Of a DNA stretch of 39,860 nt, positions 11,006-27,323 are shown piece by piece. Position 1 is the stretch's first letter. The number at the start of each line of letters is the position of its first letter. The notes beneath the pieces are model-generated. The model ran no database searches, had not been told where the DNA came from, and saw nothing but the letters and a program-made list of their open reading frames with translations. Made by a program: the position numbers and the translations under genes. This stretch comes from Roseicella sp. DB1501 (GTDB taxonomy: Bacteria > Pseudomonadota > Alphaproteobacteria > Acetobacterales > Acetobacteraceae). Location: the NCBI RefSeq assembly GCF_013112485.1, contig NZ_JABFHG010000024.1, positions 1 to 39,860 on the forward strand, written 5' to 3'.

Positions 11006-14000
11006 ATGGCGATATTCGAAGACATCAAGGCGGGCGCCCGGCTGCGGGGCCTCGATACGGCTGGCGTAGCCGAAGTCGTGCAAGTCACCAGGTTTGGCTT
11101 GGACGCGGTTAACCTCGTCTTTCGGGTGAACGGCCGTGTTGGCGAGCGGCTGGTCTACCGTGGTGAGGAGGCGGGCTTCGAGTTCCTCGAGGCGGGCCGG
11201 AGCTATGCCTTCGACGCCGACGGCGCTCTTCTCCGCCTCGCCTCGGAGGCCTACAGGCTTCGCTTGGCGCATCTCTTCGATCCCTACCTCGCAGTCAGCG
11301 CCTCTCAGATTGAGGCACTCCCTCACCAGATCACCGCTGTCTACGGTGAGATGCTGCCCCGCCAGCCTCTCCGCTTCCTGCTGGCCGATGACCCTGGCGC
11401 CGGCAAAACGGTCATGGCCGGTCTACTCATCAAGGAGCTCTTGATCCGCGGCGACCTTGAGCGCTGCCTCATCGTCGCCCCAGGTAGCTTGGTCGAGCAG
11501 TGGCAGGAGGAGATGTCCGAGAAGTTTGGCTTGGCCTTCGACCTCCTTTCCCGCGACCAGATCGAGAATTCCATCACCGGCAACCCCTTCGCCGAGCGGA
11601 ATCGGTTGATCATGCGCCTCGACATGGCCGCGCGCTCAGATGAGTTGAAGGCAAAGCTCCAGGCCGCGCCGGAGTGGGACTTGGTCATCTGCGACGAAGC
11701 CCACCGCATGGCAGCCTCATACTTTGGCGGTGAGGTAAAGGAGACTCAGCGGCACAAGCTCGGGAAACTCCTCGGTGGCCGGGCCCGCAACTTCCTCCTG
11801 ATGTCGGCCACCCCCCACAACGGCAAGGAGGCAGACTTCCAGCTCTTCATGGGACTGCTGGATGCCGACCGGTTCGAGGGGCGTTTCCGTGAGGGCGTCC
11901 ACAAGGCCGACGTCTCCGACATGATGCGCCGCTTGACCAAGGAGGAGCTGTACCGCTTCGACGGGAAGCGGCTCTTCCCTGAGCGTTGGGCGTACACGGC
12001 TAAGTACGCCCTCTCGCCCGCTGAGGAGATCCTCTACAAGGCTGTAACCACCTACGTGCGCGAGGAGATGAACCGCGCTGACCGGTCGGGCGACGGCAAC
12101 AAGCGCAGCAGCGTCGGCTTCGCGCTCCAGATCCTGCAACGGCGCCTCGCTTCCTCGCCCGCCGCTATTCACCGTTCCCTGGAACGGCGCCGGAAGCGGC
12201 TGGAGGAACGGCTGCGGGAGGAGAGGCTCCTCCGCAAGGCTGGCTCGGCGTCCCTCACGCGCGGCCCAGCCCTGCCTAGCCTCGACGCCGATGACCTTGA
12301 CGACGCACCCGGGGAGGAGGCAGAGGCGATCGAGCAGCAGATCGCTGATCAAGCTACCGCCGCCGCGACCCTGGCGGAGTTGGAAGCTGAGATCCTCATC
12401 CTCAAAGACATCGAAGCACAGGCGCTGCGCCTGAAGCTCTCCGGCCAGGACGCGAAGTGGCGAGAGCTTGAGGCGATCCTCGACGACCCGATCATGATCG
12501 ACCCGGCCACCGGGCTACGCCGCAAGATCCTGATTTTCACCGAGCCAAAGGACACGCTCGAATACCTGCAGCAGAAGATCACCGCCCGGACCGGTGATCC
12601 GGCTGCCGTGGTGGTCATTCACGGCGGCATCGCGCGAGAGGCCCGGCGTGCCGCCATCGCCGCCTTCAATTCCGACCCAGTCGTCCGGGTGATGATCGCC
12701 AACGACGCCGCCGGCGAGGGCGTGAACCTTCAGCGCGGCGCCCACCTGATGGTCAACTACGACCTGCCCTGGAACCCGAACCGGCTGGAGCAGCGCTTCG
12801 GCCGCATCCACCGCATCGGTCAGACCGAGGTCTGCCACCTCTGGAACCTGTGTGCGACCAACACCCGCGAGGGTGAGGTCTACCAGCGTCTTTTGGAGAA
12901 GCTGGAACAGGCTCGGGCGGCCCTGGGCGGTAGGGTCTACGACGTGCTGGGTGAGTTGTTCGAAGGCCAGGCCCTGCGCGACCTTCTGGTGGACGCCATC
13001 CGATACGGTGACGCGCCGGAGACCAAGAGCCGCCTCTTCCAGAAGGTGGACAATGCGGTCGACGTGGACGCGATCGAGCGTCTGGTCGCCGAGCGCAAGC
13101 TCACCTCGGAAGGCATGGACCCCAACGCTGTCGCCGCCATCCGCGAGGAGATGGAGCGCGCCCAGGCCCGCCGCCTGCAACCCCACTTCATCGGTGCCTT
13201 CTTCCGAGAGGCCTTCCAGATGCTTGGCGGCCGTATCGCCGAGCGGGAGAAGGGCCGCTTCGAGATCCTGCGCGTCCCGCCGGTCCTGAAGCATCGGGAC
13301 CGGCTGATCGGCCGTGGCGACCCCGTGCTGGATCGCTATGCGCGGGTAACTTTCGACAAGGCTCTCATCCCCGGTAAGCCACAGGCGGAACTGCTGGCCC
13401 CAGGACACCCATTGCTCGATGCGAGCATCGATGTAGTCCTTGAGCGCTTCCAGCCCCTGCTGCAGCAGGGCGGCGTGCTGGTGGACGACGCCGATGAGGG
13501 TCTCGCCCCGCGCCTGCTGGTCTATTTGGAACACGCCATCCGCGACGGTCGCGCCGCGAGGTCTGGCGAGCCTCGGGTCGTTTCCCAGCGGCTGCAGTTT
13601 ATCCAGCTGTGGGAGGATAGCCGAGCGGCCGATGGTGGCCCCGCACCCTACCTCGACTGTCGACCGATCACCGCGGAGGAGCGGGGGCTGGTCGCCGACG
13701 CTATCAACGCTCCCTGGCTGTCGGGCCATGTTGAGGAGCAAGCACTCGGCCATGCCATTGCCAAGCTGGTCCCTGAGCATCTGACCGAGGTGAAGCGCCG
13801 AAGGCTGGCAGAGATCGACAAAGTCGAGAGGGAGGTGCGGGCGCGCCTGACCCGCGAAATCAACTACTGGGACGCCCGCGCGGCCCGCCTGCGGGAGGAG
13901 GAGCGCGCCGGCAAAGAGCAGCGCATCAACGCCTCGAATGCCGAGGCGACTGCGCAGCGGTTGGTCGAGCGTCTGCACAAGCGGCAGGAGGAATTGGCGC

Positions 14001-14512
14001 AGGAGCGGCAGATCACCGCTCTGCCTCCGGTGCTGAAAGGTGCAGCGCTGGTCATCCCGAAGGGGCTCCTTCTGGCGCGGACCAAACCCGGCCCGTCCAG
14101 CGTACCTGCCGGCTTCTCGGATGATCCTGCCTCCCGCGCCGCGGTCGAGAAGCTGGCCATGGAGGCTGTCATCGCTGCGGAGCGGAAGCTGGGCAATGAG
14201 CCGCGAGACGTCTCCGCCGAGAAGAAAGGCTGGGATGTCGAAAGCCGTGATCCGCGCGCCGGTCATCTACGCTTTATCGAGGTGAAGGGTCGACATGTGG
14301 ATGGCGCGGTGATCATGCTCACCAAGAACGAGCTGCTCGCTTCCTTGAACAGCCCCGAAGCCTTCATCCTGGCCATCGTCCAAGTAGAGGCCGGCTTCGC
14401 GCGGGAGCCAATCTATGTCCGGCGCTTCTTCCAGCGGGAGCTGGGCTTCGCTGAGACGGCCGTGGCCTTCGACGTCAGGGATCTAATATCCCTGGGAAGC
14501 GCCCCGCTGTGA
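11006..14512 (+). CDS. SNF2/DEAH helicase with C-terminal DUF3883 nuclease-like domain (antiphage type)
   Basis: A 1168-residue superfamily 2 ATPase. Walker A is ADDPGAGKT (residues 127-135), DEAH lies at 230-233 and SATPHNG near 267. The helicase C-terminal half includes ANDAAGEGVNLQ and RFGRIHRIGQ, as in SNF2-type enzymes. After a long helical region, the C-terminus (about 1055-1150) carries GWDVES and RFIEVKGR, the DUF3883 domain, which has a restriction-endonuclease-like Asp...Glu-x-Lys arrangement. Helicases of this type sit with DUF1156 methyltransferases and DUF499 ATPases in predicted antiphage islands and resemble DrmD of DISARM. Its stop overlaps the next gene (GTGA). It probably translocates on DNA; the substrate is unknown. 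Confidence 0.88.
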   Translation: MAIFEDIKAGARLRGLDTAGVAEVVQVTRFGLDAVNLVFRVNGRVGERLVYRGEEAGFEFLEAGRSYAFDADGALLRLASEAYRLRLAHLFDPYLAVSASQIEALPHQITAVYGEMLPRQPLRFLLADDPGAGKTVMAGLLIKELLIRGDLERCLIVAPGSLVEQWQEEMSEKFGLAFDLLSRDQIENSITGNPFAERNRLIMRLDMAARSDELKAKLQAAPEWDLVICDEAHRMAASYFGGEVKETQRHKLGKLLGGRARNFLLMSATPHNGKEADFQLFMGLLDADRFEGRFREGVHKADVSDMMRRLTKEELYRFDGKRLFPERWAYTAKYALSPAEEILYKAVTTYVREEMNRADRSGDGNKRSSVGFALQILQRRLASSPAAIHRSLERRRKRLEERLREERLLRKAGSASLTRGPALPSLDADDLDDAPGEEAEAIEQQIADQATAAATLAELEAEILILKDIEAQALRLKLSGQDAKWRELEAILDDPIMIDPATGLRRKILIFTEPKDTLEYLQQKITARTGDPAAVVVIHGGIAREARRAAIAAFNSDPVVRVMIANDAAGEGVNLQRGAHLMVNYDLPWNPNRLEQRFGRIHRIGQTEVCHLWNLCATNTREGEVYQRLLEKLEQARAALGGRVYDVLGELFEGQALRDLLVDAIRYGDAPETKSRLFQKVDNAVDVDAIERLVAERKLTSEGMDPNAVAAIREEMERAQARRLQPHFIGAFFREAFQMLGGRIAEREKGRFEILRVPPVLKHRDRLIGRGDPVLDRYARVTFDKALIPGKPQAELLAPGHPLLDASIDVVLERFQPLLQQGGVLVDDADEGLAPRLLVYLEHAIRDGRAARSGEPRVVSQRLQFIQLWEDSRAADGGPAPYLDCRPITAEERGLVADAINAPWLSGHVEEQALGHAIAKLVPEHLTEVKRRRLAEIDKVEREVRARLTREINYWDARAARLREEERAGKEQRINASNAEATAQRLVERLHKRQEELAQERQITALPPVLKGAALVIPKGLLLARTKPGPSSVPAGFSDDPASRAAVEKLAMEAVIAAERKLGNEPRDVSAEKKGWDVESRDPRAGHLRFIEVKGRHVDGAVIMLTKNELLASLNSPEAFILAIVQVEAGFAREPIYVRRFFQRELGFAETAVAFDVRDLISLGSAPL

Positions 14513-15186
14513 TCGTCGGATACGTTTTTGAAGGCGACAGCGACAAGGCCACCAAATGGGAGCAGCACGATGTCTATGGGCGGGCATTGCAGATTATCGC
14601 TGCTGGCTGCCGCGAGCATGTTCGCCTTGCCGTAGCCCTACTCCAGACCGAGTGGCCGGCGCGCTGGGTAGCGGATGGCGCCTTCGACCATCGCACCTTG
14701 CAGGACGCTCACGATACGCTAGCTGCCGTATGGCGGCATGATGTCTGCCCGGCACAGCCCGAACTACCATTCCGTGTGGCTCGTCCGGATGCAGCCGACC
14801 GGATGAGCCGTTGGCTATCCTGGCTTTCGGCGGAGATGGAGTCCTGGCGTCATAGCCCGCGCGGCATCGTGCTGGTGATGACCATCTTGTCCAACCAGAA
14901 CACCCTGGTGGGCTACCAAGCGGAAGATGAACTCGCGGAATGGCTGCGCGAGCGCTTCCACACTGTACCTTGGCGCCGTCCGCGCATTCCTCTTCCTCCT
15001 ACTGCGGCCAGGATGGGGGTACCTGTCAGTGCCTCAGGCGGCACCGACGAGGCGGACCCAGACGACTTTCCTCGCGGGTTGGATGGCTGCGACTGCGTGA
15101 GGGTTGGGCGCCCACCTTGCCATTGCCTCCCCTGTATCACGCTCTGCGAGCAGGCCGAGCGTGAAGGGTGGGGGCCGCTCGAGTGA
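14509..15186 (+). CDS. Unrecognised protein with C-terminal cysteine cluster, in the helicase-methylase operon
   Basis: A 225-residue protein starting at GTG 14509 inside the helicase stop, and overlapping the methyltransferase start by four bases. It is therefore an integral member of the operon. I do not recognise the family. The first 150 residues look globular and Trp-rich (TEWPARW, VWRHDV, RWLSWLSAEMESW). A proline-rich linker follows. The C-terminus has six cysteines in about 30 residues: C-x-C near 197-199, then CHCLPC, then CEQ, suggesting a metal-binding module. No signal peptide or membrane segment. A role as specificity or accessory factor is inference. Confidence 0.75.
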   Translation: MIVGYVFEGDSDKATKWEQHDVYGRALQIIAAGCREHVRLAVALLQTEWPARWVADGAFDHRTLQDAHDTLAAVWRHDVCPAQPELPFRVARPDAADRMSRWLSWLSAEMESWRHSPRGIVLVMTILSNQNTLVGYQAEDELAEWLRERFHTVPWRRPRIPLPPTAARMGVPVSASGGTDEADPDDFPRGLDGCDCVRVGRPPCHCLPCITLCEQAEREGWGPLE

Positions 15187-18116
15187 GCGATTTCAAGACA
15201 GATGGACACATGACAATTCGAAAAAAGCTCATCGAGGTTTCCATCCCGCTGGAGGCCATCAACCAGTCCAGCGCGCGGGAGAAGTCCATCCGCCACGGCC
15301 ATCCCTCTACCCTGCATCTCTGGTGGGCGCGCCGACCCCTCGCGGCCTGCCGGGCAGTGCTGTTCGCGCAACTGGTGGACGATCCTTCGGCTTGGCCAGA
15401 CCGCTTCCAAACACCGGAGGCAGTGGAGGCGGAACGTGACCGACTGCACCGGCTGATCGGCGGCACCAAGGCGGCTGGCTACAAGGATGGCCTCGTCGCG
15501 TGGGAGAACGCGAACAACGAGGAGATGCTGACCAAGGCGCGCTGGGAGATCGCCCGCAGCGTTGCTTGGGGGCGTGGCGAGGAGCCGCCTCCGAAGGAGG
15601 ACGGCGGCGCCATCCTCCGTTATCTGCAGGAGAAGGCACCGCCGGTTTATGACCCTTTCTCGGGCGGCGGCTCCATCCCGCTGGAGGCGCAGCGGCTCGG
15701 CCTGCGGGCCTATGGTAGTGACTTGAACCCTGTGGCGGTGTTGATCGGTAAGGCTTCGGTGGAGATCCCACCAAGATTCGCCGGGCGGCCGCCAGTGAAC
15801 CCAGCTGCGCGGGGGCAACTCGGCCTTGGTGCCTGGCGCGGGGCACAGGGGCTGGCCGATGATGTGCGCTACTACGGTCAATGGATGCGGGAGGAGGCGG
15901 CGCGGCGTATCGGACATCTCTACCCGGAGGCAGTGCTGCCGGACGGCAGCAAGGCGACTGTCATCGCATGGCTCTGGGCACGCACAGTGCGCAGCCCGGA
16001 CCCGGCAGCGAGAGGGGCGATGGTGCCGCTTGTCTCCTCCTTCCTGCTCTCGACCAAAGGTAGCGAGAAGACATGGGTTGAGCCAGTGATCGACCCGGCT
16101 GCTCCTGACGGGTACCGCTTCGAGGTACGAAACGGGCAACTCTCGAAGGTAGACGAGGAGCGGCTAAAAAAAGGTACGATCGGGCGAAGTGAGGGAGGCA
16201 CTTGCATCCTCTCCGGCACAGCTATGCCTTTCAGTTACATTCGCAGCGAAGGCCAAAACAATGGGCTCGGTAACCGCCTCATGGCCGTGGTCGCGGAAGG
16301 TAACCGGTCTCGTGTTTATCTAAGCCCCTCAGATAAGCAGACAGCCGCAGCAATTAGTGCAGTTCCAGTCTGGGAACCAGAAGGCGAGTTGCCCAACAAT
16401 CCCCGCGACTTCAAGACTCCTAACTACGGGATGAAAACCTTCGCCTCGCTCTTCACTCCGCGTCAGCTTGTAGCGCTGACCACCTTCTCTGATCTGGTGG
16501 TAGAGGCGCGAGAAAGGGCGGTGGCCGATGCATGCGTCGCCGGTCTGCCAGATGACCCAACTCCGCTGCACAGCGGCGGCACCGGCGCCGTCGCCTATGC
16601 CGATGCGGTAGCAACGTATCTCTCGATGATAGTAAGCCGACTTGCAGATCGGTGCTCGAGCCTATGCTCATGGGATATCCGAGACGGCCAGGGCCGCAAG
16701 CCCGGCATCCGGAATGTGTTTTCTCGCCAAGCGATTGCTATGACCTGGGACTATGCTGAAGCGTATCCCTTGTCTGAGATCGCAGCAAGCCTAGACAGTA
16801 GTATTGGTCGTATTTTCGATGTGCTCCAGCGGCTTCCATCGGCTGGCCAAGGACAAATGCTGATCACTGACGCAGCGAAAAATTCTTTTGCTGTCCGCCC
16901 AATCGTCATATCTACTGATCCGCCCTATTACGACAACATTGGCTACGCGGATCTCTCGGATTTCTTTTATGTTTGGCTCCGACACTCGCTTGGCAGCGTT
17001 TGGCCGGATCTGTTTCGGCGTCTCGTTACGCCAAAGGCAGAGGAACTCGTCGCCACGCCCTACCGGCATGGTGGCCGAGCGGAAGCGGAAGCCTTCTTCA
17101 TGCAGGGCATGGGCCAAGCTCTGCACGCCATGAGGAATGCGGCGACGGAAGGCGAACCGCTGGCTATCTACTATGCCTTTAAGCAAGCCGAAGCCGCCGA
17201 GGACGGCATCACTTCCGCCGGGTGGGCCTCCTTCCTCCAGGCGGTGGTGGATGCCGGTTTGGCAGTGGACGGCACTTGGCCGCTGCGTACGGAATTGGCC
17301 AACCGGATGATCGGCCGAGACGCCAACGCCTTAGCTTCCTCTATCGTCCTGGTTTGCCGCAAGCGCGCTGCTGCGGCGCTGGTCGTTACCCGCGCCGAGT
17401 TCATCCGTGCCCTCAAGCGCGAACTACCCGACGCCATCGGTGACATCCGTAAGGCCGGTGTTGGCCCAGTGGACATGCAGCAATCCGTTATCGGCCCTGG
17501 CATGGGCGTCTTCACTCGCTTTGCCAAAGTGCTAGAGGACGACGACAACGCCATGACTGTGAGGACCGCGCTCGCCCTCATCAACCGCGTCTGGGACGAG
17601 TTGGAGAACGAGCTCTCCGAGAGCTTCGACGCGCCAACCCAAGTCGCCCTGGCTTGGTTCGCCACCTACGGCTTCGACGCCCGGCCCTCGGGCGAGCTGA
17701 TCACCCTGGCCAATGCCAAGAACGTCCCGCTCGGCACCCTCTTTGCCTCCGGCGTGTTCCAAGACCTCCGCGGTAAGGCAAACCTCATCCCTCGGGCCGA
17801 GTTGCCAGTAGATTGGTCGCCAGCCACCGATAAGGCGCCGACAGTCTGGGAATGCCTCCAGCATACCATCCGTATCCTAAACGCTGCGGACGGCGGCGCC
17901 GAGGCGGCGGCGGCGCTGGTGGTGCAGATGGGGCCGCGGGCCGAGGAGGCGCGGGCGCTGGCCTACCGCCTCTTTGATGTAGCCACCCAGAAGGGCTGGG
18001 CGGCCGAGGCGCTGGTCTACAACGCCCTAGCGGAGGAATGGCCGCGGCTACGCGACATGGCGCCCGAGATCGCCACCCACGGGCCGGCTGCTGCCGTGCA
18101 GGCATCGCTGTTCTGA
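15183..18116 (+). CDS. DUF1156-domain DNA methyltransferase (antiphage-associated)
   Basis: A 977-residue protein. The N-terminal DUF1156 domain begins RKKLIEVSIPLEAINQSS and includes HGHPSTLHLWWARRPLAA, the family signature. SAM-binding motif I is YDPFSGGGS (residues 156-164), followed by AYGSDLNPVAV. Catalytic motif IV is TDPPY at 578-582, so it is an amino-methyltransferase (N6-adenine or N4-cytosine). GTG 15183 is chosen because it gives the same 4-base overlap seen at the other junction; ATG 15210 is an alternative. In related systems the enzyme probably marks host DNA. The C-terminal 350 residues are family-typical but of unknown role. The target sequence cannot be read from the protein. 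Confidence 0.9.
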   Translation: MSDFKTDGHMTIRKKLIEVSIPLEAINQSSAREKSIRHGHPSTLHLWWARRPLAACRAVLFAQLVDDPSAWPDRFQTPEAVEAERDRLHRLIGGTKAAGYKDGLVAWENANNEEMLTKARWEIARSVAWGRGEEPPPKEDGGAILRYLQEKAPPVYDPFSGGGSIPLEAQRLGLRAYGSDLNPVAVLIGKASVEIPPRFAGRPPVNPAARGQLGLGAWRGAQGLADDVRYYGQWMREEAARRIGHLYPEAVLPDGSKATVIAWLWARTVRSPDPAARGAMVPLVSSFLLSTKGSEKTWVEPVIDPAAPDGYRFEVRNGQLSKVDEERLKKGTIGRSEGGTCILSGTAMPFSYIRSEGQNNGLGNRLMAVVAEGNRSRVYLSPSDKQTAAAISAVPVWEPEGELPNNPRDFKTPNYGMKTFASLFTPRQLVALTTFSDLVVEARERAVADACVAGLPDDPTPLHSGGTGAVAYADAVATYLSMIVSRLADRCSSLCSWDIRDGQGRKPGIRNVFSRQAIAMTWDYAEAYPLSEIAASLDSSIGRIFDVLQRLPSAGQGQMLITDAAKNSFAVRPIVISTDPPYYDNIGYADLSDFFYVWLRHSLGSVWPDLFRRLVTPKAEELVATPYRHGGRAEAEAFFMQGMGQALHAMRNAATEGEPLAIYYAFKQAEAAEDGITSAGWASFLQAVVDAGLAVDGTWPLRTELANRMIGRDANALASSIVLVCRKRAAAALVVTRAEFIRALKRELPDAIGDIRKAGVGPVDMQQSVIGPGMGVFTRFAKVLEDDDNAMTVRTALALINRVWDELENELSESFDAPTQVALAWFATYGFDARPSGELITLANAKNVPLGTLFASGVFQDLRGKANLIPRAELPVDWSPATDKAPTVWECLQHTIRILNAADGGAEAAAALVVQMGPRAEEARALAYRLFDVATQKGWAAEALVYNALAEEWPRLRDMAPEIATHGPAAAVQASLF

Positions 18117-18136
18117 CCGGCTGAAGGGGAAAACGC

Positions 18137-21100
18137 ATGTCGGCCGAAAAGGAAACCCTGCGCCGGGTGCAGGACGGGCTATTCCATATGCGTCAGGGGC
18201 TGAAGCCCTTCGTCGAGGCGCGGATGAAGAAGGTCCATGGCGCCAACTGGCTGCACTACGCCAGCCGAGCCACAGGCGGCGCTCCAAATGACGCACTGGA
18301 CGTCTACGGCTTGCTCAAGACCATGATCGACAACTGGCGGGAGGTGTTCGAAGACGCGTTCGGCCGAAATGAGAAGCACAAGGCCCGCAACTTCGCATCC
18401 ATGGCCCTAGAGGCGCGCAACGCCGCCTCCCATCTTGCCATCCCACTCGCTGACGATGAGGCGCTGCGTTACGTCGATGCGATGCACCAGCTGCTCAAGC
18501 TGGTGAAGGCCCCGGATGGGGAAGTGGCGGAGCTGAAGCGCCTGTACGACGAGCAGCGCCGCTCCGGCATGACGACCGCGCCTTCAACGCCCGTCACCCC
18601 GACGCCGGCTGCCCGCCTTGACCTGTCAGGGGAAAACACGTCGACCAAGGCGTTGAAACCCTGGATCGAGGTGGTGCTGCCCCATCCGGACGTCATCGCC
18701 AACCGCTTCAAAGAAGCGGAGTTCGCCGCCGACCTCTTCGCAGTCGATGCCGGCCACGCCACCGATGGCTATGCAACACCTACCGACTTCTTCGGCATTA
18801 CGTTCCTGACCGAGGGTCTGAAGCGCGTCCTGACCTCGGCCTTGCAGCGGCTCTCCGGCAGCGGTGGCGACCCGGTGATTGGGCTGCAGACCGCCTTTGG
18901 CGGCGGCAAGACGCACACCATGCTCGCTATCTATCATTTGGCGCGACACCTGCGGGAAGGCGGCGACCCACGTGGCCTGACCGGCATGGCGCCCCTGGTG
19001 GAACGGTTGAGCGTTGCCTCCTGGCCGAAGCCGCAGGTAGCCGTTTTCGTTGGCTCCTCGAAGGGTGCAGATGTCTCACTGAACCTGAAGAGCGGACCTT
19101 CAGTCCGCACCCTTTGGGGCTACATCGCATGGAGGTTGGCTGGCGAAGCTGGCTTGAAGCTGGTCGCGGAGGCTGAGGCGGCACGCACCAACCCGGGCTC
19201 CGAACTGCTAGTGGAGCTGTTCCGGCTGGCTGGACCGAGTGTGATCCTGCTCGACGAGCTGACCATGTTCGCCCGCCAGCTCGACGACGACCGCTTCGAG
19301 GCACTGCTCTCCTTTGTTCAGTCGCTGACCGAGGCAGCAAAGATGGCGCCCGGCGTGCTGATCATCGGCTCGCTGCCGGAGAGCCGGGCCGAGGCCGGTG
19401 GCCCTCGGGGTGAGGCCGCGCTGCTGCGGCTGGAGAAGGTTTTCGGCCGCGTGCAATCTGCCTGGTTGCCGGCTTCGGGCAACGAAACCTATGAAATCGT
19501 CCGCCGCCGCCTGTTCCAGCCGCTCGACGCAGACGGAGAGCGGGCGCGTGAGGAGACCATCAAGGCCTTCTACGATCTCTACAAAAAGAACACGGCCGAG
19601 TTCCCGCCTGAGACCAAGGAGCCACGCTACTTGGAGCTCCTCCGCCTCTCCTACCCGATCCATCCGGAGCTGTTCGAGCGGCTGTCGAAGGATTGGTCTA
19701 GCCTGCAGAAATTCCAGCGGACGCGCGACGTCATCCGCTTCATGGCAAACGTCGTTGGCGTGCTCTGGCACACGCAGAGCCGCGACCCGCTGATTACTCC
19801 CGCTCGGGTGCCAGTGGCACATGAAAAGGTGCGGACGGGCGTGCTCTATCCGCTCGATCCCGCCTTCGGGGCGGTGGTGGACAAGGAGGTGGACGGCGAT
19901 GGCGCACTCCCAGCGCGGATGGAGTCGAACCCCTCCCGTCGGATCTCCCAGCTACGGGCAGCGACGCGGGCCGCGCGTGCTGTGTTCCTGTGCTCGGCCC
20001 CTAGCGTGGGTCAGCCGAATGCCGGGCTGACGAGCCAGGGGTTGCGGCTCGCCTGTGCAGAGCCGGGCGACCAACTCGCCATTTTCGGGGAGGCGCTGCG
20101 CGAGCTGGCTGAGCGCGCGACCTACCTCTATGAGGAGGCAGGCCGCTACTGGTTCTCAACCCAACCGACACTCAATCGGCTGGCTGACGACCGAGCCAAG
20201 GCCCTGTTGGACCAGCCGCATGAGGTGGACGCCGAGATCGTCCGCATGCTGGTCGAGGATTCCGGCACGAAGGGCAACTTCCATCGGGTCTTTGTCGCGC
20301 CGAACGATCCAGTATCGATCGACGAGGCGCAGGCACTCTCGCTGGTGATCCTTGCACCGGCAACTCCGCATGCGGGGAAAGGTGGGACGAAGTCGGCCGC
20401 ATCGGACGCAGTCGCTGAGGCCCTGCTGCGGTGCCGCGCGGCGCAGCGGCGGTTCCGTAATACACTGGTCTTTGTTGCTTCAGACGAAGCGAACTTGTCC
20501 ACTGCCAGGGAGGTAGTGGCACGGGCGCTGGCCTGGGATTCGATCGTGAAGGATGGTCGTCTGCAGCAGCAGATGACGCAGGCCCAAGCCGCCGACGCGA
20601 AGGACAAGGCGAAGACCCACGGAGATGGCGCACGCAAGGCCGTGCGAGTGGCCTGGGGCCATGTCTTCTACCCAGTGAAAAGTGAAGCCGCGGGCAAGCC
20701 CTTCGACATCGAGCACAGCCTCGTCTCAATCTCGTCGCGGGACCGCGCTGCTATCCCGGCGGTAGTGTACGACAAGGCCAAGGCAGAGGGGATCGCACTG
20801 GAGAAGCTCGGCTCGGAGCGCCTGTGGCACGCGCTGCAGCCACTCTGGCCGGAGGACCGACCGCACTTACCGCTATCCGAGGTCGCAGACTGGTTCGCCG
20901 CCTACCCCTACATGCCGAGGCTGCGGGACCGTGTGGTCTTGGAGACGGCGCTCCGGGACGCCGTGGCCAAGCTGGATCCTCAGTTCGGCTACGCGGACGG
21001 ATTCGACGAGGCGACGGGTCAATACCAGAACCTGGTCTGGGCCAAGAACCCGCCGGAGTTGCCGCCGGCAGGCGCCGTGCTTGTGCGAGCGGCGGAGGCT

Positions 21101-21478
21101 CAAGCTCAGACAACCATCGTCGAACCGAAGAGGCCGACAGATCCTCCGCCTATCGGTCCTGCGATTCCGGGAGGAGGCGGAAAGCCAAACGGCGGTGGCG
21201 CCGAGCCGACCGGCTGGCCCTCAGGCAGTACGCCACAAAAGCCACGCCGCTTCTACGGCTCTGTCGAGATAGACATGGTACGGCCGGTGAAATCGTTCGA
21301 TGCCATCCTCAATGCCGTCGTCATGGAGCTGCAGCGGACCCAGGGAGCCAAGGTGAAAATCACACTCGAGATTGAGAGTGATGCGCCTGAGGGGTTCGCC
21401 GAAAGCGAAGTTAGTATCGTGCGGGACAATGCCAAGCAGCTGAAATTTAGACCTGAGGCAACGGGCTTTGAGGAATAG
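18137..21478 (+). CDS. DUF499 AAA-type ATPase with N-terminal Swt1-like HEPN domain (antiphage-associated)
   Basis: An 1113-residue protein. The first 140 residues are helical and match the Swt1-family HEPN pattern, with an RNAASH motif at residues 94-99, the Arg-x4-His signature of HEPN RNases. A short linker leads to the DUF499 ATPase: Walker A FGGGKTHTM (254-262) and Walker B VILLDELTM (369-377). The C-terminus has a proline/glycine-rich linker near 1000-1035 and a small beta domain. DUF499 ATPases accompany DUF1156 methyltransferases in predicted antiphage islands. It lies 20 bases after the methyltransferase with a GAAGGGG ribosome site. An RNase activity released during infection is possible but inferred. 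Confidence 0.88.
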   Translation: MSAEKETLRRVQDGLFHMRQGLKPFVEARMKKVHGANWLHYASRATGGAPNDALDVYGLLKTMIDNWREVFEDAFGRNEKHKARNFASMALEARNAASHLAIPLADDEALRYVDAMHQLLKLVKAPDGEVAELKRLYDEQRRSGMTTAPSTPVTPTPAARLDLSGENTSTKALKPWIEVVLPHPDVIANRFKEAEFAADLFAVDAGHATDGYATPTDFFGITFLTEGLKRVLTSALQRLSGSGGDPVIGLQTAFGGGKTHTMLAIYHLARHLREGGDPRGLTGMAPLVERLSVASWPKPQVAVFVGSSKGADVSLNLKSGPSVRTLWGYIAWRLAGEAGLKLVAEAEAARTNPGSELLVELFRLAGPSVILLDELTMFARQLDDDRFEALLSFVQSLTEAAKMAPGVLIIGSLPESRAEAGGPRGEAALLRLEKVFGRVQSAWLPASGNETYEIVRRRLFQPLDADGERAREETIKAFYDLYKKNTAEFPPETKEPRYLELLRLSYPIHPELFERLSKDWSSLQKFQRTRDVIRFMANVVGVLWHTQSRDPLITPARVPVAHEKVRTGVLYPLDPAFGAVVDKEVDGDGALPARMESNPSRRISQLRAATRAARAVFLCSAPSVGQPNAGLTSQGLRLACAEPGDQLAIFGEALRELAERATYLYEEAGRYWFSTQPTLNRLADDRAKALLDQPHEVDAEIVRMLVEDSGTKGNFHRVFVAPNDPVSIDEAQALSLVILAPATPHAGKGGTKSAASDAVAEALLRCRAAQRRFRNTLVFVASDEANLSTAREVVARALAWDSIVKDGRLQQQMTQAQAADAKDKAKTHGDGARKAVRVAWGHVFYPVKSEAAGKPFDIEHSLVSISSRDRAAIPAVVYDKAKAEGIALEKLGSERLWHALQPLWPEDRPHLPLSEVADWFAAYPYMPRLRDRVVLETALRDAVAKLDPQFGYADGFDEATGQYQNLVWAKNPPELPPAGAVLVRAAEAQAQTTIVEPKRPTDPPPIGPAIPGGGGKPNGGGAEPTGWPSGSTPQKPRRFYGSVEIDMVRPVKSFDAILNAVVMELQRTQGAKVKITLEIESDAPEGFAESEVSIVRDNAKQLKFRPEATGFEE

Positions 21479-22270: not shown

Positions 22271-22611
22271 TCGGTCCCCCGCCGGGCGCCCGCGTCCTTC
22301 TCGCCTGCGGCGTCACTGACATGCGGCGCGGCATGGACAGCTTGGCTGCGCTGGTCCAGCAATCGCTCGGCGCCGATCCGTTCGACGGCTCGCTCTACGC
22401 CTTCCGCGGACGCAAGGGGCGGCTGGTGAAATGTCTCTGGCACGACGGGGTCGGCCTGTGCCTGCTGACCAAGCGCATCGAGCAGGGTGCCTTCCCCTGG
22501 CCCACGACGCCGAATGGCAAGGTGGTGCTGTCGCCGGCTCAGATGTCCTTGCTGCTCGAGGGCCTCGAGTGGCGCCGGGTGCAGCCGGCCTGGCGGCCTA
22601 CGGCGGTGTGA
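22267..22611 (+). CDS. tnpB: IS66-family TnpB
   Basis: A 114-residue protein with the family signature GVTDMRRGMDSLAALVQ, LYAFRGRKGRLVKCLWHDG and LLTKRIEQGAF. It is required for IS66 transposition in characterised members but has no known enzymatic activity. Intact, and coupled to tnpA by a 4-base overlap. Confidence 0.9.
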   Translation: MIGPPPGARVLLACGVTDMRRGMDSLAALVQQSLGADPFDGSLYAFRGRKGRLVKCLWHDGVGLCLLTKRIEQGAFPWPTTPNGKVVLSPAQMSLLLEGLEWRRVQPAWRPTAV

Positions 22612-22669
22612 TCGCGCAACACGCTGCTTTCGCTTGGTGCGACGCGCGGGCGTCGGCGACGATTCTGCC

Positions 22670-24190
22670 GTGCCCGACACTCCGCCCCCTGTTGTGGTGG
22701 AACTGCGCACCGCGCTTGCCGCGGCGGAGGCGCGCATCGCGCAGCTCGAGCAGATCATCCACGACCTGCGACGGGCACGGTTCGGCCCGAGCATCGAGCG
22801 CGTCGATCCGGGCCAGCTCGCGCTGGCCCTCGGCGCGGCTCCGCCACCTCCGCCGGCGAATGGCAATGACACCCCGGTGCCGGAGCGCAAGCCTGCCGCC
22901 GAACGTCGGCGCAACCGTGGCGCGCTGCCGGTGCATCTGGAGCGCATCGAGGAGGTGATCGACATCGCCGACCGCGCCTGCCCCTGCTGTCGGGGCGAGA
23001 TGCACCGGTTCGGCGAGGACCGGGCCGAGCGGCTGGACGTCGTACCCGCCCAGTTGCGGGTCCGCGTCACCGTCCGGCCGCGCTATGCCTGCCGGCGCTG
23101 CGCCGAGGGTGTGCACCAGGCGCCAGCACCGGCACGGATCGTCGCCGGCGGCCTGCCGACCGAGGCGCTGCTGGCGCATGTTCTGGTCTCGAAGTACGCC
23201 GACGGCCTGCCGCTCTACCGCCAGTGCCAGATCCTCGCCCGCGGCGGCATCCATCTCGACCGCGCGACGCTCTGCGACTGGGTGCGCCAGGCCTGCTGGT
23301 GGCTCCGGCCGCTGCACGAGTTGGTCCTTGCCCATGTCGTCGGCCATGCGCGGGTGTTCGCCGACGACACGCCGCTGCCCACCCTGGCGCCAGGCAGGGG
23401 ACGGATGCGTGACGGGCGGATCTGGGCCTATGCCGCCGATGACCGAGCCTCGGGCGGCACCGGGCCGCCGGCGGTCGCCTACGTCTACGCCCTGGACCGC
23501 AAGGGCATCCGGCCAGCTCGGCATCTCGCCGCCTTCCGGGGCACGCTGCAGGTGGACGGCTATGGCGGGTTCCGCGCGCTGGCGGAGCGCAGGAACGACG
23601 GCGCGGTCGCGCTCGCGTTCTGCTGGGCGCATCTGCGCCGGCGCTTCCACAAGATCCACGCCCACACCGCCTCGCCAATCGCGGCCGAGGCCCTGCTGCG
23701 CATCGGCGCGCTCTACGCCGTCGAGCGCGAGGTTCGTGGCCGACCCGCCGAGGAACGCCAGGCCGTCCGCCAGGAGCAGAGCGCGCCGCTCGTGCGCGAT
23801 CTCCGCCTATGGCTCGATGCGCAGCTCGGCCGCGTCAGCCAGGGCTCGGCGCTTGCCGCGGCTATCCGCTACGGCCTGCGGCACTGGGAGGGCCTCTGCC
23901 GGTTCCTGGACGACGGCACGCTCGAACTCGACACCAACAGCGTGGAGCGGGAGATCCGGCCCGTCGTCGTCACGCGCAAAGCGGCGCTGTTCGCCGGCAG
24001 CGAGGGCGGCGGCGAGAACTGGGCCATCGCCACGACGCTGATCCGCACCGCCATCCTCAGCGGCGTCAACCCGCAGGCCTGGCTGACCGACGTGCTGGAG
24101 CGGATGGTCCGCGGCGAGGTCCGCTCGACGGAGCTCGCCTCGCTGCTGCCCTGGGCCTGGCGCCAGCCCGGCACCGCCGCCGCGGCGTAG
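22670..24190 (+). CDS. tnpC: IS66-family transposase TnpC
   Basis: A 506-residue transposase with the full IS66 domain order. An N-terminal leucine-zipper region comes first (LAAAEARIAQLEQIIHDLRR), then a zinc-binding CPCC...CRRC segment near residue 105-145. The DDE catalytic core follows, with FADDTPLP, VDGYGGFRAL and LDTNSVEREIRP, and then the C-terminal NWAIATTLIRTA block. GTG 22670 is used; GTG 22637 would add 11 residues. It appears intact, so the IS66 may still supply transposase in trans although the element itself is split. Confidence 0.9.
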   Translation: MPDTPPPVVVELRTALAAAEARIAQLEQIIHDLRRARFGPSIERVDPGQLALALGAAPPPPPANGNDTPVPERKPAAERRRNRGALPVHLERIEEVIDIADRACPCCRGEMHRFGEDRAERLDVVPAQLRVRVTVRPRYACRRCAEGVHQAPAPARIVAGGLPTEALLAHVLVSKYADGLPLYRQCQILARGGIHLDRATLCDWVRQACWWLRPLHELVLAHVVGHARVFADDTPLPTLAPGRGRMRDGRIWAYAADDRASGGTGPPAVAYVYALDRKGIRPARHLAAFRGTLQVDGYGGFRALAERRNDGAVALAFCWAHLRRRFHKIHAHTASPIAAEALLRIGALYAVEREVRGRPAEERQAVRQEQSAPLVRDLRLWLDAQLGRVSQGSALAAAIRYGLRHWEGLCRFLDDGTLELDTNSVEREIRPVVVTRKAALFAGSEGGGENWAIATTLIRTAILSGVNPQAWLTDVLERMVRGEVRSTELASLLPWAWRQPGTAAAA

Positions 24191-24192
24191 GG

Positions 24193-24288
24193 CTATCGCG
24201 TCGGCAGCGCCGCCGGCATCTCCTCCGCCTCGCTCGTGTCGGCGTGCACCGCGCCGTGGATGATCCGCGTCGTGACCTCCTGCAAGTG
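24193..24288 (-). pseudogene. 3-prime part of an IS66 accessory gene split by Tn3
   Basis: This minus-strand stretch is the C-terminal end of the gene whose N-terminal part lies at 36502-36854. Joining the two pieces and counting the AAGTG duplication once gives 444 bases, a single frame of 147 residues ending in TAG (24193-24195). The restored tail reads QEVTTRIIHGAVHADTSEAE and onward. It runs convergent to tnpC, with which it almost abuts. Function unknown. Confidence 0.75.
24284..24288. repeat. Left 5-bp target-site duplication AAGTG of the Tn3-family transposon
   Basis: AAGTG immediately before the left terminal repeat is repeated immediately after the right terminal repeat at 36502-36506. 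Five base pairs is the duplication length of Tn3-family insertion. Confidence 0.9.
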
Positions 24289-24326
24289 GGGGTCCGGACA
24301 CGAAAGTGCGCTGAGTGTCCGGTTCG
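24289..24326 (+). repeat. Tn3-family left terminal inverted repeat
   Basis: Begins GGGGTCCGGACACGAAAG. The first 33 bases match the inverted right end with one difference (position 7). It contains GGACAC and GTGTCC as inner inverted arms. Confidence 0.92.
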
Positions 24327-24344
24327 TGCGAACGGATCCGGAAC

Positions 24345-27323
24345 CTACGCGGCCAGGATGGAGGGCCTGTCGCGCAGCGGCCTGAGAGATCCGGCGGTGG
24401 GCTGGGCTTCGGCCGCCCAGACGTAGTCACCGGTGAGGCCGACATGTTCCCAGCCGAGCGGAGCGACGTGGCGGACCAGATCGGGCGTGACGGCCTGCCC
24501 GCGGGCGCGGAGCGCGTCGAAGGAGGCCTGCAGGTAGCGGGTGTTCCAGAGGATGATGGCCGCGACGAGCAGGTTCAGCCCGGAGGCGCGGTAGGCCTGG
24601 TTCTCGAAGGAGCGGTCGCGCAGTTCGCCGAGGCGGTGGAAGAAGACCGCCCGCGCCAGCGCGTTGCGGGCCTCGCCCTTGTTCAGCCCGGCGTTGGCGC
24701 GCCGGCGCAGGTCGCTGCTGCGCAGCCAGTCGAGGGTGAACAGCGTCCGCTCCAGCCGGCCGACCTCGCGCAGCGCCACGGCGAGGCCGTTCTGGCGCGG
24801 ATAGGCGGCAAGACGACGCAGCACGTCGGAGGCGGCGACGTGGCCGGAGCCGACCGAGACGGCGAGCCGCAGCGCCTCGTCCCAGTGGGCGCGCAGGTGC
24901 TCGATATCGACGGTGCCGCCCATCATGCCGGAGAAGGCCTCCGGCACCGCCATGCCGCGGAAGGTGTAGAGCCGGCGGTCTTTGAGATCGCGCAGGCGCG
25001 GCGCGAAGCGGATGCCGAGCAGCGCGAAGAGGCCGAAGACCTGGTCGGTCGCGCCGCCGGTGTCGGTGTAGTGCTCGGCGAAGCGCAGGCCTGTGCCGTG
25101 GCGCAGCAGGCCGTCGAGCACGTGCGGCGCCTCGGAGGCGGTCGCGGCGATGACCTTCGTGTGGAACGGCCCGAACTGGTCGGAGACGTGGGTGTAGAAG
25201 GCGACGCCGGGCTCGTTGCCGTGCCTGGCGTTGACGTCGCCGACTGCCTCGCCGCGGCCGCCGGCGCGGAAGAACTGCCCGTCCGAGCTGGAGGTGGTGC
25301 CGTCGCCCCAGGCCGCGGCGAGCGGCAAGGCGCGGTGCGCCTCGATCAGGCGGGCGAGGGCCGCCGCGTAGCATTCCTCGCGGACGTGCCAGTCGTGGGT
25401 CCAGGCAAGCTGGCGGAGCGCCGGACCGCGGCAGGATTCCGCCATGCGCGTGAGGCCGAGATTGATGCCGTCGGCCAGCACCGCGGTCAGCAGCGCAGCG
25501 CGGTCGGGTGCGGGCCTGCCGCTGCGCGCGTGGGTGAAGCACTCGGAGAGGCCGGTCCAGCCGTCCACCTCCAGCAGCAGGTCGGTGATGCGGATTCGCG
25601 GGAGGAGGGCGTAGGCATCGGCCGCGAACCGTTTGACCTCGGGCGGCGCCTCCGCCCGGATCGGCGTGATGTGCAGCCCGTCCTCGTCGAGCGTGGCGTC
25701 GGGCAGCCGACCGGCCCCGGCGAGTGCCGCGACCTCGGCCATGGCGGCTTCCAAGGCTTCCTGTCGCGATGCGAGGTGAGCCTCGATGTCCTCGGCCACG
25801 CCAACCGCCAGCGGCCCCTCCGCGCGCAGCGCTGCGAAGGTCGGCCGCGGCAGGAGGAGATCCTCGAAGTTGCGGTAGCGCCGGCTGCCGCGCACCCAGA
25901 CGTCGCCGGCGCGGAGCCGGTCGCGGAGTTCAGAGAGGACGCAGACCTCCCAGGCCCGGCGGTCCGGCTTGCCGGCGCCGCCGATCACGAAGGGCCGCCA
26001 AGCACGCCGGATGAAGCCCGTTGGCGCATCGTCCGGCAGGGTGCGCCGGCCGGCGGCGTCCATCTCGCGCAGCACCGCCAATGCCTTGCGCAGGCCTGCG
26101 GTGCCGGTCGCGCCCTCGAAGTCGAATGTCTCCAGCAGCGCCGGGGCGAAGCGCCGCATCGTCGGCCAGCGGCCGACCAGTTCGGCACGCATGTCGATCG
26201 CCTCCGGCCGGGCGAGGTCCTCCGCCTCGGCCACGGCGCGCAGGAACGGCGCCCAGCCCACTGCCTGCTCGACGGCGTCCGCCGCATCCGTCCCGCCCTC
26301 GCGGGCGGCGATCACGGCCCGGCCGGCACGGGCGAGCAGGCGGAGGTGGGCCTGCGCGTCCCGCAGCGCGCCGGCGGCACCCTCCGTGGCGCCCTGCTCG
26401 GCGCGGCGCGACAGGGTGCCCATGAGCTTGTCGAACATCAGCAGGGCGGCGTCGGTCAGCTCCGCCTCGAGCCGCAGGACGGCGGCGGCGAGGGTCGCGC
26501 CCCGCCGCGGCTGGGCCAGGTCGCGCAGGTGCTGCGCCGTCATGCGCAGGCCCTCCCCGGCGAGGGCGTCGAAGGCGATCGGCGGCACCGCGGCCTCCCG
26601 GCTCCGCTCGATGCCGAGCGCTCGGACTGCGCGCAGGCGCTCGACCAGGCCGTGCAGGTTGGCCGCCGCGGGCGAGACGGAGGCGCCGCGCAGCCATGCC
26701 AGGCGCGACGGGCTGCCGCCGGGCGCGGCCGCTATCAGCCCGTCCAGCTCGGCAAGCCGCGCCACGTCGAGCCCGTCCGTCAGGGCGCGGTGCGCGACCC
26801 GCTCGGCCCGGGCGCGCGCCTCGTGGATCAGCCCCTCCAGCACCCCGGGCGTGGGCAGCAGGATGCGCCGACGGCGGAGCTCCTCGATCAGCGTCGTGGC
26901 GAGTTCCGCCGGTGTGCGGCGCGAGCCGGCGATGGCGGTCAGCCAAGCGACGATCGCACGCGCCTCGGTGCGGCCGAAGCTCCGGAACCCGCCCTGCCGC
27001 ATCAGCTCGGCCAGATACTCGCGCCGGCTCTGCGGACGGAGACGGTGGACCTCCAGCGCCGTCGGATCGGCGTCGACCTGCCGGGCCACGTAGGCGGTCA
27101 TGAGTGCCGGTGGCACCTCGGCGGCCTCCAGCGCGCGGCCGGGGTGCCGGAGGGTGAGGAGCAGGAGCGCGTAGGCGAGCCGGCCGTGCGGGCTGCGCTT
27201 GGCCGCGACGAGGGCGAGGTCGTCGGGGGTGAGGGTGCAGTGCCGCACCACCTCCAATTCCTCGGTCGGCAGCGCGAACACCCCTGCCCAGAACGCATCA
27301 CCCAGCAATCGCCGCCTCGCCAT
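24345..27323 (-). CDS. tnpA: Tn3-family transposase
   Basis: A 992-residue DDE transposase of the usual Tn3 length. The N-terminal DUF4158-type region starts MARRRLLGDAFWAG. The C-terminal catalytic domain has Asp674 in WGDGTTSSSDGQ, Asp754 in HYTDTGGATDQVFG and Glu884 in NKGEARNALARAVFFHR, all in the expected order. It ends 18 bases from the inner edge of the left terminal repeat. It is divergent from tnpR across a 150-base region containing a likely res site, so both are probably repressed by resolvase. The gene is intact. Confidence 0.95.
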   Translation of the reverse strand: MARRRLLGDAFWAGVFALPTEELEVVRHCTLTPDDLALVAAKRSPHGRLAYALLLLTLRHPGRALEAAEVPPALMTAYVARQVDADPTALEVHRLRPQSRREYLAELMRQGGFRSFGRTEARAIVAWLTAIAGSRRTPAELATTLIEELRRRRILLPTPGVLEGLIHEARARAERVAHRALTDGLDVARLAELDGLIAAAPGGSPSRLAWLRGASVSPAAANLHGLVERLRAVRALGIERSREAAVPPIAFDALAGEGLRMTAQHLRDLAQPRRGATLAAAVLRLEAELTDAALLMFDKLMGTLSRRAEQGATEGAAGALRDAQAHLRLLARAGRAVIAAREGGTDAADAVEQAVGWAPFLRAVAEAEDLARPEAIDMRAELVGRWPTMRRFAPALLETFDFEGATGTAGLRKALAVLREMDAAGRRTLPDDAPTGFIRRAWRPFVIGGAGKPDRRAWEVCVLSELRDRLRAGDVWVRGSRRYRNFEDLLLPRPTFAALRAEGPLAVGVAEDIEAHLASRQEALEAAMAEVAALAGAGRLPDATLDEDGLHITPIRAEAPPEVKRFAADAYALLPRIRITDLLLEVDGWTGLSECFTHARSGRPAPDRAALLTAVLADGINLGLTRMAESCRGPALRQLAWTHDWHVREECYAAALARLIEAHRALPLAAAWGDGTTSSSDGQFFRAGGRGEAVGDVNARHGNEPGVAFYTHVSDQFGPFHTKVIAATASEAPHVLDGLLRHGTGLRFAEHYTDTGGATDQVFGLFALLGIRFAPRLRDLKDRRLYTFRGMAVPEAFSGMMGGTVDIEHLRAHWDEALRLAVSVGSGHVAASDVLRRLAAYPRQNGLAVALREVGRLERTLFTLDWLRSSDLRRRANAGLNKGEARNALARAVFFHRLGELRDRSFENQAYRASGLNLLVAAIILWNTRYLQASFDALRARGQAVTPDLVRHVAPLGWEHVGLTGDYVWAAEAQPTAGSLRPLRDRPSILAA

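What the first reader, a model, noticed from the sequence alone, without database searches (positions are those of the whole stretch)
11006..21478. Four-gene helicase / unknown / DUF1156 methylase / DUF499-HEPN ATPase defence-like operon
Four large co-directional genes with two 4-base overlaps encode an SNF2-type helicase with DUF3883, an unrecognised 225-residue protein, a DUF1156 methyltransferase and a DUF499 ATPase with a HEPN domain. From established knowledge, helicase-methylase-ATPase (Hma) sets and DUF499/DUF1156 sets are predicted antiphage systems, and DrmD-like helicases belong to DISARM. DrmA, DrmB, DrmC, BrxC and PglZ are absent. The fourth component is not one I know from these systems, so this may be a distinct variant.
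Basis: partly seen in the sequence, partly recalled or inferred. Interest (0 to 1): 0.78.

Follow-up and report, generated by a model that had tools for sequence, protein, structure and literature searches.

The report
Hma defence operon with exchangeable accessory gene
This is an apparently intact copy of a known bacterial anti-virus operon (Hma) that carries, at a position where other copies carry different defence or toxin-like genes, a small protein of an unrecognised family that also sits next to an unrelated kind of DNA-cutting system.

Summary
Observation confirmed: four co-directional genes at 11006-21478. Genes 1, 3 and 4 are HmaA, HmaB and HmaC of the known Hma system (PADLOC E 0, 0 and 5e-236), also called type-1 BREX-related. 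The DUF3883/NOV_C nuclease and HEPN-DUF499 fusion are published (PMC3710099, PMC12839542), so they do not make a new variant. DISARM is not supported: DrmD scores 371 bits against a cutoff of 610. Catalytic residues are present and conserved.

The new part is gene 2 (14509-15186), without a significant match in Pfam, NCBIfam, PADLOC, PHROGs or PDB sequences. I found 12 loci, each beside restriction-type genes: Hma in 4, an MmeI-like type IIG gene in 7, an N6-methylase gene in 1. An 11-sequence alignment has 18 invariant positions, 11 of them D, Q, H, R or Y, and gives an all-helical model (pLDDT 84, pTM 0.82) without a significant Foldseek match.

Gene 2 lies in the hmaA-hmaB junction, filled in 9 of 15 family operons and 14 of 29 non-redundant plasmid operons, elsewhere with PIN, PRTase-CE, Tiamat-like or Septu-like genes among others. 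Most likely gene 2 is an exchangeable accessory of restriction-type systems; effector rather than regulator is inferred, not shown.

The parts
11006..14512 (+). hmaA: SNF2-type helicase fused to a C-terminal PD-(D/E)XK-like nuclease domain, 1168 aa
   Evidence: PADLOC HmaA E=0 over residues 2-1163. Walker A in 26 of 27 aligned rows (the other is gapped), DEAH in 26 of 27.
14144..14389 (+). NOV_C (DUF3883) nuclease-like domain of HmaA, residues 1047-1128; candidate active site D1077 ... E1092-x-K1094
   Evidence: Pfam NOV_C E 1.2e-18. D1077 in 26 of 27 rows, E1092 and K1094 in 27 of 27.
14509..15186 (+). gene 2: accessory protein of an unrecognised family, 225 aa; conserved core 14509-14982
   Evidence: No match in PADLOC, Pfam, NCBIfam or PDB sequences; best PHROGs hit E 0.07. 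Homologues in 11 further loci. dN/dS 0.16 against L006.
14509..14512 (+). GTGA overlap of the hmaA stop and the gene 2 start
   Evidence: Sequence. The same GTGA stands at this junction in L006 and L007.
15183..15186 (+). GTGA overlap of the gene 2 stop with a possible in-frame GTG start of hmaB
   Evidence: Sequence. An ATG at 15210 is an alternative start.
15183..18116 (+). hmaB: DUF1156 DNA methyltransferase (predicted N6-adenine)
   Evidence: PADLOC HmaB E=0; Pfam DUF1156 E 4e-30. DPF of motif I and DPPY of motif IV in 25 of 25 rows.
16710..16859 (+). hypervariable stretch of HmaB just before DPPY; likely part of the target-recognition region
   Evidence: 30-38% identity in this 50-residue bin in 5 of 5 relatives, other HmaB bins 48-100%. 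The 1-kb block 16001-17000 has GC 0.567, against 0.664 before and 0.648 after.
18137..21478 (+). hmaC: DUF499 AAA+ ATPase with an N-terminal Swt1-like HEPN domain, 1113 aa
   Evidence: PADLOC HmaC E 5e-236 over residues 172-1106. Walker A GGGKT and the Walker B D-E in 21 of 21 rows.
18179..18505 (+). HEPN_Swt1 domain of HmaC, residues 15-123, with R94-N-x3-H99
   Evidence: Pfam E 2.2e-16. H99 in 17 of 21 rows, the other 4 being gapped there.

Best explanation
The operon is an Hma (type-1 BREX-related) restriction-like antiphage system with one accessory gene. Inferred working: HmaB marks host DNA by methylation; HmaC, a DUF499 ATPase, helps assemble on or sense unmarked DNA; HmaA translocates and cuts it with its C-terminal nuclease; the HEPN domain of HmaC is a back-up RNase. 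Gene 2 is an exchangeable accessory placed, with overlapping start and stop codons, between hmaA and hmaB; most likely it is an added effector that acts together with, or after failure of, the core restriction reaction. Shown here: family membership, presence of the catalytic residues, operon structure, change of contents at the junction, and the restriction-gene neighbourhood of gene 2. Inferred: all activities and the effector role. The confidence below is for the system and the accessory-slot reading; the effector role alone I put at about 0.5.
For: Strong HmaA, HmaB and HmaC matches. Catalytic motifs conserved in 21 to 27 aligned rows, window included. HmaB hypervariable stretch next to DPPY. 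Gene 2 overlaps hmaA, and possibly hmaB, by GTGA. All 12 distinct gene 2 loci lie beside restriction or methylase genes. The hmaA-hmaB junction is filled in 9 of 15 family operons and 14 of 29 non-redundant plasmid operons. Several other fillings are recognised toxin or defence families: PIN in 6 family operons, PRTase-CE in 1, Tiamat-like in 3 loci, a Septu-like pair in 1. In the HmaA tree the window (gene 2) is sister to L044 (PRTase-CE), support 94/93, just under the program's mark of 95.
Against: No activity was measured. The model of gene 2 matches nothing significantly, so no catalytic class can be assigned. In one genus gene 2 is divergent from the MmeI-like gene, which would also suit a regulator. 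Several slot proteins match no toxin family (L053, L063, L065, L073 and others). The hmaB-hmaC junction is filled too (2 of 12 family, 8 of 28 plasmid), and the excess at hmaA-hmaB is modest (Fisher p 0.014 pooled, 0.047 family, 0.18 plasmids). 6 of 15 family operons have no slot gene, so a slot gene is not needed by the type. Payne 2021 calls HmaB a predicted m5C methylase, against adenine in PADLOC and in the 2026 survey.
Confidence: 0.8

Rival explanations
1. Gene 2 is a regulator or brake of restriction, or a partner of the methylase-nuclease that limits self-cutting, not an effector.
For: It is linked to restriction systems of two unrelated kinds. It is divergent from the MmeI-like gene in 6 of 6 loci of one genus, an arrangement common for regulators. 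It is short and all-helical.
Against: No known regulator family is matched. Several other genes in the same slot look like effectors or whole defence modules. The invariant residues are rich in H, D, R and Q, which suits catalysis or ligand binding.
Confidence: 0.3
2. Gene 2 is an effector of one particular kind, a diverged HEPN-type RNase: it is helical and has an invariant R62-x5-H68.
For: R62 and H68 are invariant in 11 of 11 sequences. The model has six helices. HmaC already carries a HEPN domain, and PIN domains, mostly RNases, fill the same junction elsewhere.
Against: Foldseek against the PDB gave 0 matches at E <= 0.001, and no title among the 50 rows listed of 102 names a HEPN protein. 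No Pfam HEPN model matches any of 11 members. The spacing alone is weak evidence.
Confidence: 0.12
3. Gene 2 is a passenger that happened to land in the operon and has no role in defence.
For: The window also holds IS66 and Tn3 transposases and a KfrA-like plasmid gene, and slot contents change readily. Two of 12 copies are broken (L010, G740).
Against: Purifying selection (dN/dS 0.11-0.21). GTGA overlap with hmaA in the window, L006 and L007. All 12 loci beside restriction genes. In one genus gene 2 is in 5 of 100 genomes and the MmeI-like gene in 15 of 100; 4 of the 5 are shared and the fifth has an MmeI piece at a contig edge (p 0.0016).
Confidence: 0.1
4. The operon is a DISARM or BREX variant.
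For: HmaA cross-matches DrmD and BrxH models.
Against: The HmaA model beats DrmD by over 1100 bits; DrmD is below its curated cutoff. No DrmB, DrmC, BrxC or PglZ among the listed hits of 14 window proteins. A deeper kinship of these systems with BREX is argued in PMC12839542 and is not disputed here.
Confidence: 0.02

Closest known systems
Hma system (Payne 2021, PMC8565338; passages read)
   Same: HmaA, HmaB and HmaC, matched by the PADLOC models.
   Different: An extra gene between hmaA and hmaB. Payne describes a three-gene operon that often occurs with Septu type I and calls HmaB a predicted m5C methylase.
Type-1 DUF499-centred BREX-related (BR) system (PMC12839542; sections 28, 29, part of 35, and passages read)
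   Same: DUF499 ATPase with HEPN fusion (1370 of 2446 taxa there), DUF1156 methylase, helicase-nuclease fusion.
   Different: The survey calls type-1 the simplest organisation, with only the three core genes, and reports auxiliary nucleases in or beside loci. Its main text does not contain the words Septu, PRTase or Tiamat. Gene 2 matches no nuclease family tested.
HEPN-DUF499 / SNF2-DUF3883 restriction cluster (Anantharaman 2013, PMC3710099; passages read)
   Same: Same HEPN-ATPase fusion and helicase-DUF3883 fusion, predicted active there.
   Different: No gene 2 in the passages read.
MmeI-like type IIG restriction loci (L008, L013, L076, L077, L081, L082, L083)
   Same: Gene 2 homologue directly beside a methylase-nuclease gene.
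   Different: Unrelated restriction architecture; in 6 of 7 loci gene 2 is divergent rather than co-directional.

Membership tests
Hma / type-1 BR system | HmaA helicase | tested here: met
   PADLOC E=0, 1560.8 bits, residues 2-1163
Hma / type-1 BR system | HmaB DUF1156 methyltransferase | tested here: met
   PADLOC E=0, 1137.7 bits; DPPY in 25 of 25 rows. The base methylated was not tested.
Hma / type-1 BR system | HmaC DUF499 ATPase | tested here: met
   PADLOC E 5.2e-236; Walker A and B in 21 of 21 rows
Hma / type-1 BR system | C-terminal active REase on the helicase (79% of type-1 BR taxa in PMC12839542, so usual rather than required) | tested here: met
   NOV_C E 1.2e-18; E-x-K in 27 of 27 rows. 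Activity itself not tested.
Hma / type-1 BR system | Only three core genes, contiguous (as described; not a requirement for carrying extra genes) | tested here: not met
   Gene 2 lies between hmaA and hmaB; so do other genes in 8 further of 15 family operons. I read this as an accessory, not as exclusion from the family.
Hma / type-1 BR system | Protection against phage | not testable with these tools
   PMC12839542 cites Liu 2024 for phage defence by the helicase; that paper was not held
DISARM | DrmD at curated cutoff | tested here: not met
   371 bits against cutoff 610
DISARM | DrmA and DrmB (and DrmC) present | tested here: not met
   No DrmB or DrmC among listed hits of 14 window proteins; the only DrmA hit is a cross-match of HmaA. 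The rest of the genome was not searched.
BREX | BrxC and PglZ present | tested here: not met
   None among listed hits of 14 window proteins. The rest of the genome was not searched.
HEPN superfamily (gene 2) | R-x4-6-H motif | tested here: met
   R62-x5-H68 in 11 of 11 rows
HEPN superfamily (gene 2) | HEPN fold | tested here: inconclusive
   Helical model with pLDDT 84 but 0 Foldseek matches at E <= 0.001 and no HEPN title among 50 listed rows of 102; helical bundles are hard for such searches (my judgement)

The most novel reading that the evidence does not exclude
Gene 2 founds a new protein family, possibly with a new all-helical fold and a new active site built on H20-D21, D60-H61-R62 and H68-D69. 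It would be a portable restriction companion used by two unrelated systems (Hma and MmeI-type IIG), and hmaA-hmaB would be a dedicated cargo slot through which Hma operons swap whole effectors and even complete defence modules.
Probability: 0.45. Interest if true: 0.65.

Novelty: new variant of a known kind. Interest (0 to 1): 0.45.

Why it matters
Hma is widespread (26 phyla in Payne 2021), and how it senses and responds is open. A junction that accepts different genes in otherwise similar operons gives a natural experiment: the same core with different cargo. Gene 2 adds an uncharacterised family whose visible common factor is a neighbouring restriction or methylase gene, so a test in either system would inform the other.

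Tried and rejected
Gene 2 as a known family: PADLOC, Pfam, NCBIfam, PHROGs and PDB-sequence searches found nothing better than chance. Gene 2 on plasmids or phages: tblastn of P0002, P0005 and the L081 homologue in plasmids, and of P0006 and the window core in phages, no match. IMG/VR scan with A2: 71 stretches matched a pattern, none confirmed. The first structure model, from 5 sequences, was poor (pLDDT 44.7) and was not used for fold conclusions. Family search: 4 of 299 genomes matched, of which L004 was dropped: a weak hit (E 4e-4, 36 residues) on the strand opposite to ORFs that I recognise by recall as pyrH/frr-like. Class search: only the window in 385 genomes; phylum search: 2 of 398 including the window; relatives of G021: 0 of 59. 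Whether slot proteins of other operons are gene 2 was tested with the A2 profile on six frames of 73 loci: none from L044-L060 or L061-L073 matched at E <= 1. HEPN and HD-hydrolase ideas for gene 2 have no fold support.

Limits of the counts. Of 33 family genomes with an HmaB match, window's included, I fetched 17 regions; 14 of them plus the window show hmaA and hmaB on one contig and strand. L056, L058 and L059 were not counted because hmaA was not seen. Some counted operons are broken: L048 and L054 have hmaA in pieces or shortened, L054 has transposases inside hmaB, L049 and L060 lack part of hmaB or all of hmaC. Of the 55, 13 Thermus thermophilus records with hmaA inverted and one without an HmaB row were set aside, leaving 41 (A-B filled in 17 of 41, B-C in 11 of 40), or 29 after collapsing like gaps within a label. 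A filled junction there means a computed gap of 240 bases or more; I looked at the contents only for the 13 regions. Thermus oshimai has an IS4 transposase under its HmaB match. Loci found by searching with gene 2 itself (L006-L010 and one genus) are not in the occupancy counts. The 12 of 12 neighbourhood count holds 4 Hma loci (L006 lacks hmaB up to its contig end), 7 MmeI-like loci (G1200 shows only an MmeI piece at a contig edge; G740 holds a broken gene 2; the G1168 MmeI match is in two pieces) and 1 N6-methylase locus (L010, broken gene 2). The names Tiamat for TmtA, Rosmerta for RmrA and Septu for an ATPase plus HNH pair are recalled.
Full report
Observation. Gene 1 ends and gene 2 starts on GTGA (14509-14512), and gene 2 ends on a GTGA whose GTG is in frame with hmaB (15183-15186); hmaC starts 20 bases after hmaB.

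Identity of the core. PADLOC names genes 1, 3 and 4 HmaA (1561 bits), HmaB (1138 bits) and HmaC (784 bits). The HmaC match begins at residue 172, so it does not cover the HEPN domain; the domain is nevertheless published as part of these systems (PMC3710099, passages; PMC12839542, section 29). DISARM DrmD is far below its cutoff. In alignments of the operons fetched here, the helicase Walker A and DEAH motifs (26 of 27 rows each), the E-x-K of NOV_C (27 of 27), the methylase DPF and DPPY motifs (25 of 25) and the ATPase Walker motifs (21 of 21) are conserved; the HEPN H99 is present in 17 of 21 rows, the other four being gapped there. Nothing in the operon looks broken. HmaB has a hypervariable 50-residue bin just before DPPY (30-38% identity in 5 of 5 comparisons, other bins 48-100%), in a 1-kb block of lower GC (0.567 against 0.664 and 0.648 on either side), as expected for a target-recognition region that is exchanged. 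Sources disagree on the base: adenine in PADLOC and PMC12839542, m5C in Payne 2021.

Gene 2. It has no match in PADLOC, Pfam, NCBIfam or PDB sequences and only chance-level PHROGs hits. Homologues were found in 11 further loci: three beside Hma genes (L006, L007, L009), seven beside an MmeI-like type IIG gene (L008 co-directional; G740, G1108, G1168, G1184, G1196 and G1200 divergent), and one truncated copy beside an N6-methylase gene (L010). With the window this is 12 of 12. In 100 genomes of the last genus gene 2 was found in 5 and the MmeI-like gene in 15; 4 of the 5 are among the 15, and the fifth (G1200) has an MmeI piece at its contig edge; Fisher p 0.0016 on 4/11/1/84. So gene 2 is an optional companion: most MmeI-like genes there lack it. 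The family is under purifying selection (dN/dS 0.11-0.21 in six pairs). In 11 sequences, down to 30% identity with the window, 18 positions are invariant; eleven are D10, Q19, H20, D21, Y23, D60, H61, R62, Q65, H68 and D69. AlphaFold2 on this alignment gives pLDDT 84.1 and pTM 0.82, with six helices. Foldseek gave no match at E <= 0.001 in the PDB or in viral predictions; the best PDB hit has E 0.93, and TM-scores in the listed rows (50 of 102 and 50 of 150) are 0.31 or less. A missing Foldseek match does not prove a new fold.

The slot. Regions were fetched from 17 of the 33 family genomes that hold an HmaB match; with the window, 15 operons show hmaA and hmaB together. Nine have one or more genes between them and 6 do not, while hmaB-hmaC is filled in 2 of 12. 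Fillings: PRTase-CE (L044); a PIN gene in six operons, alone in L045 and, with at least one unmatched ORF, in L049, and together with a 143-aa and a 440-aa protein, the latter weakly RmrA-like in L054 (E 2e-5), in L048, L054, L055 and L060; an unmatched 182-aa protein (L053); and gene 2 (window). Outside this sample, L009 has a Tiamat-like ATPase followed by gene 2. Among plasmids the slot holds an ATPase plus HNH pair of Septu or retron type (L070), a 163-aa protein plus a Tiamat-like ATPase 82% identical to that of L009 in L061 and, with two more genes, L062, the 163-aa protein alone in L073, other unmatched proteins (L063, L065, L068) and DUF29, AAA and DUF4435 genes (L066). By coordinates, 14 of 29 non-redundant plasmid operons have hmaA-hmaB filled and 8 of 28 hmaB-hmaC. 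Pooled, hmaA-hmaB is filled more often (p 0.014; family alone 0.047), but not significantly in plasmids alone (0.18). In the HmaA tree the window is sister to L044 with PRTase-CE (94/93), with L006 (gene 2) next (99/97), and gene 2 recurs in a second clade (L007, L009) among operons carrying Tiamat-like and other genes: contents change between close relatives. The PIN operons, in contrast, form one clade there, so that filling is inherited.

Interpretation. The core is a known restriction-like defence system. That auxiliary nucleases sit in or beside such loci is published (PMC12839542 section 35, first of two parts read), and Payne 2021 reported frequent occurrence with Septu type I. I found no text on a cargo slot between hmaA and hmaB, or on a gene 2 family, in my searches; most subscription papers, preprints and all supplements were out of reach. 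Gene 2 is best read as an exchangeable accessory. I favour effector over regulator, because several slot neighbours are toxin or defence genes and the invariant residues suit catalysis, but the divergent arrangement at MmeI-like loci keeps the regulator reading alive.

Context. The window also holds IS66 and Tn3-family transposases, a KfrA-like plasmid gene and a pair matching the phage-defence candidates PDC-M41A and PDC-M41B at 99-1531, so the operon sits in a stretch with mobile and further defence-type genes.

Noticed in passing
window 99-1531 (- strand): Two adjacent genes match the PADLOC phage-defence candidates PDC-M41A (E 1e-53) and PDC-M41B (E 1e-105; Pfam DUF5131), a second candidate defence module in the same window.
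   Followed up: partly
window 22487-27323: An IS66 transposase and, on the other strand, a Tn3-family transposase lie downstream of the operon.
   Followed up: no
L009:5690-9925, L061:12734-17224, L062:13872-18095: A ~1400-aa GHKL/sacsin-type ATPase (TmtA-like by PADLOC for the L009 copy, E 1e-54; the three are 82% identical to it) lies inside the hmaA-hmaB junction, preceded by a conserved 163-aa protein in L061 and L062.
   Followed up: partly
L070:10688-12665: An AAA ATPase plus 'retron system putative HNH endonuclease' pair is nested between hmaA and hmaB on Rhizobium rhizogenes plasmid pC6.5e.
   Followed up: no
L055:12384-15905: HmaB appears to carry an in-frame insertion of roughly 180 residues near residue 450 (open frame 1196 aa).
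   Followed up: no
L071 and 12 other Thermus thermophilus plasmids: hmaA is inverted relative to hmaB; in HB8 pVV8 a Fic-family gene lies between them.
   Followed up: no
window 15088-15135: The C-terminal tail of gene 2 has a cysteine-rich stretch (CDCVRVGRPPCHCLPC) absent from the other four members aligned at full length; possibly a metal-binding addition.
   Followed up: no
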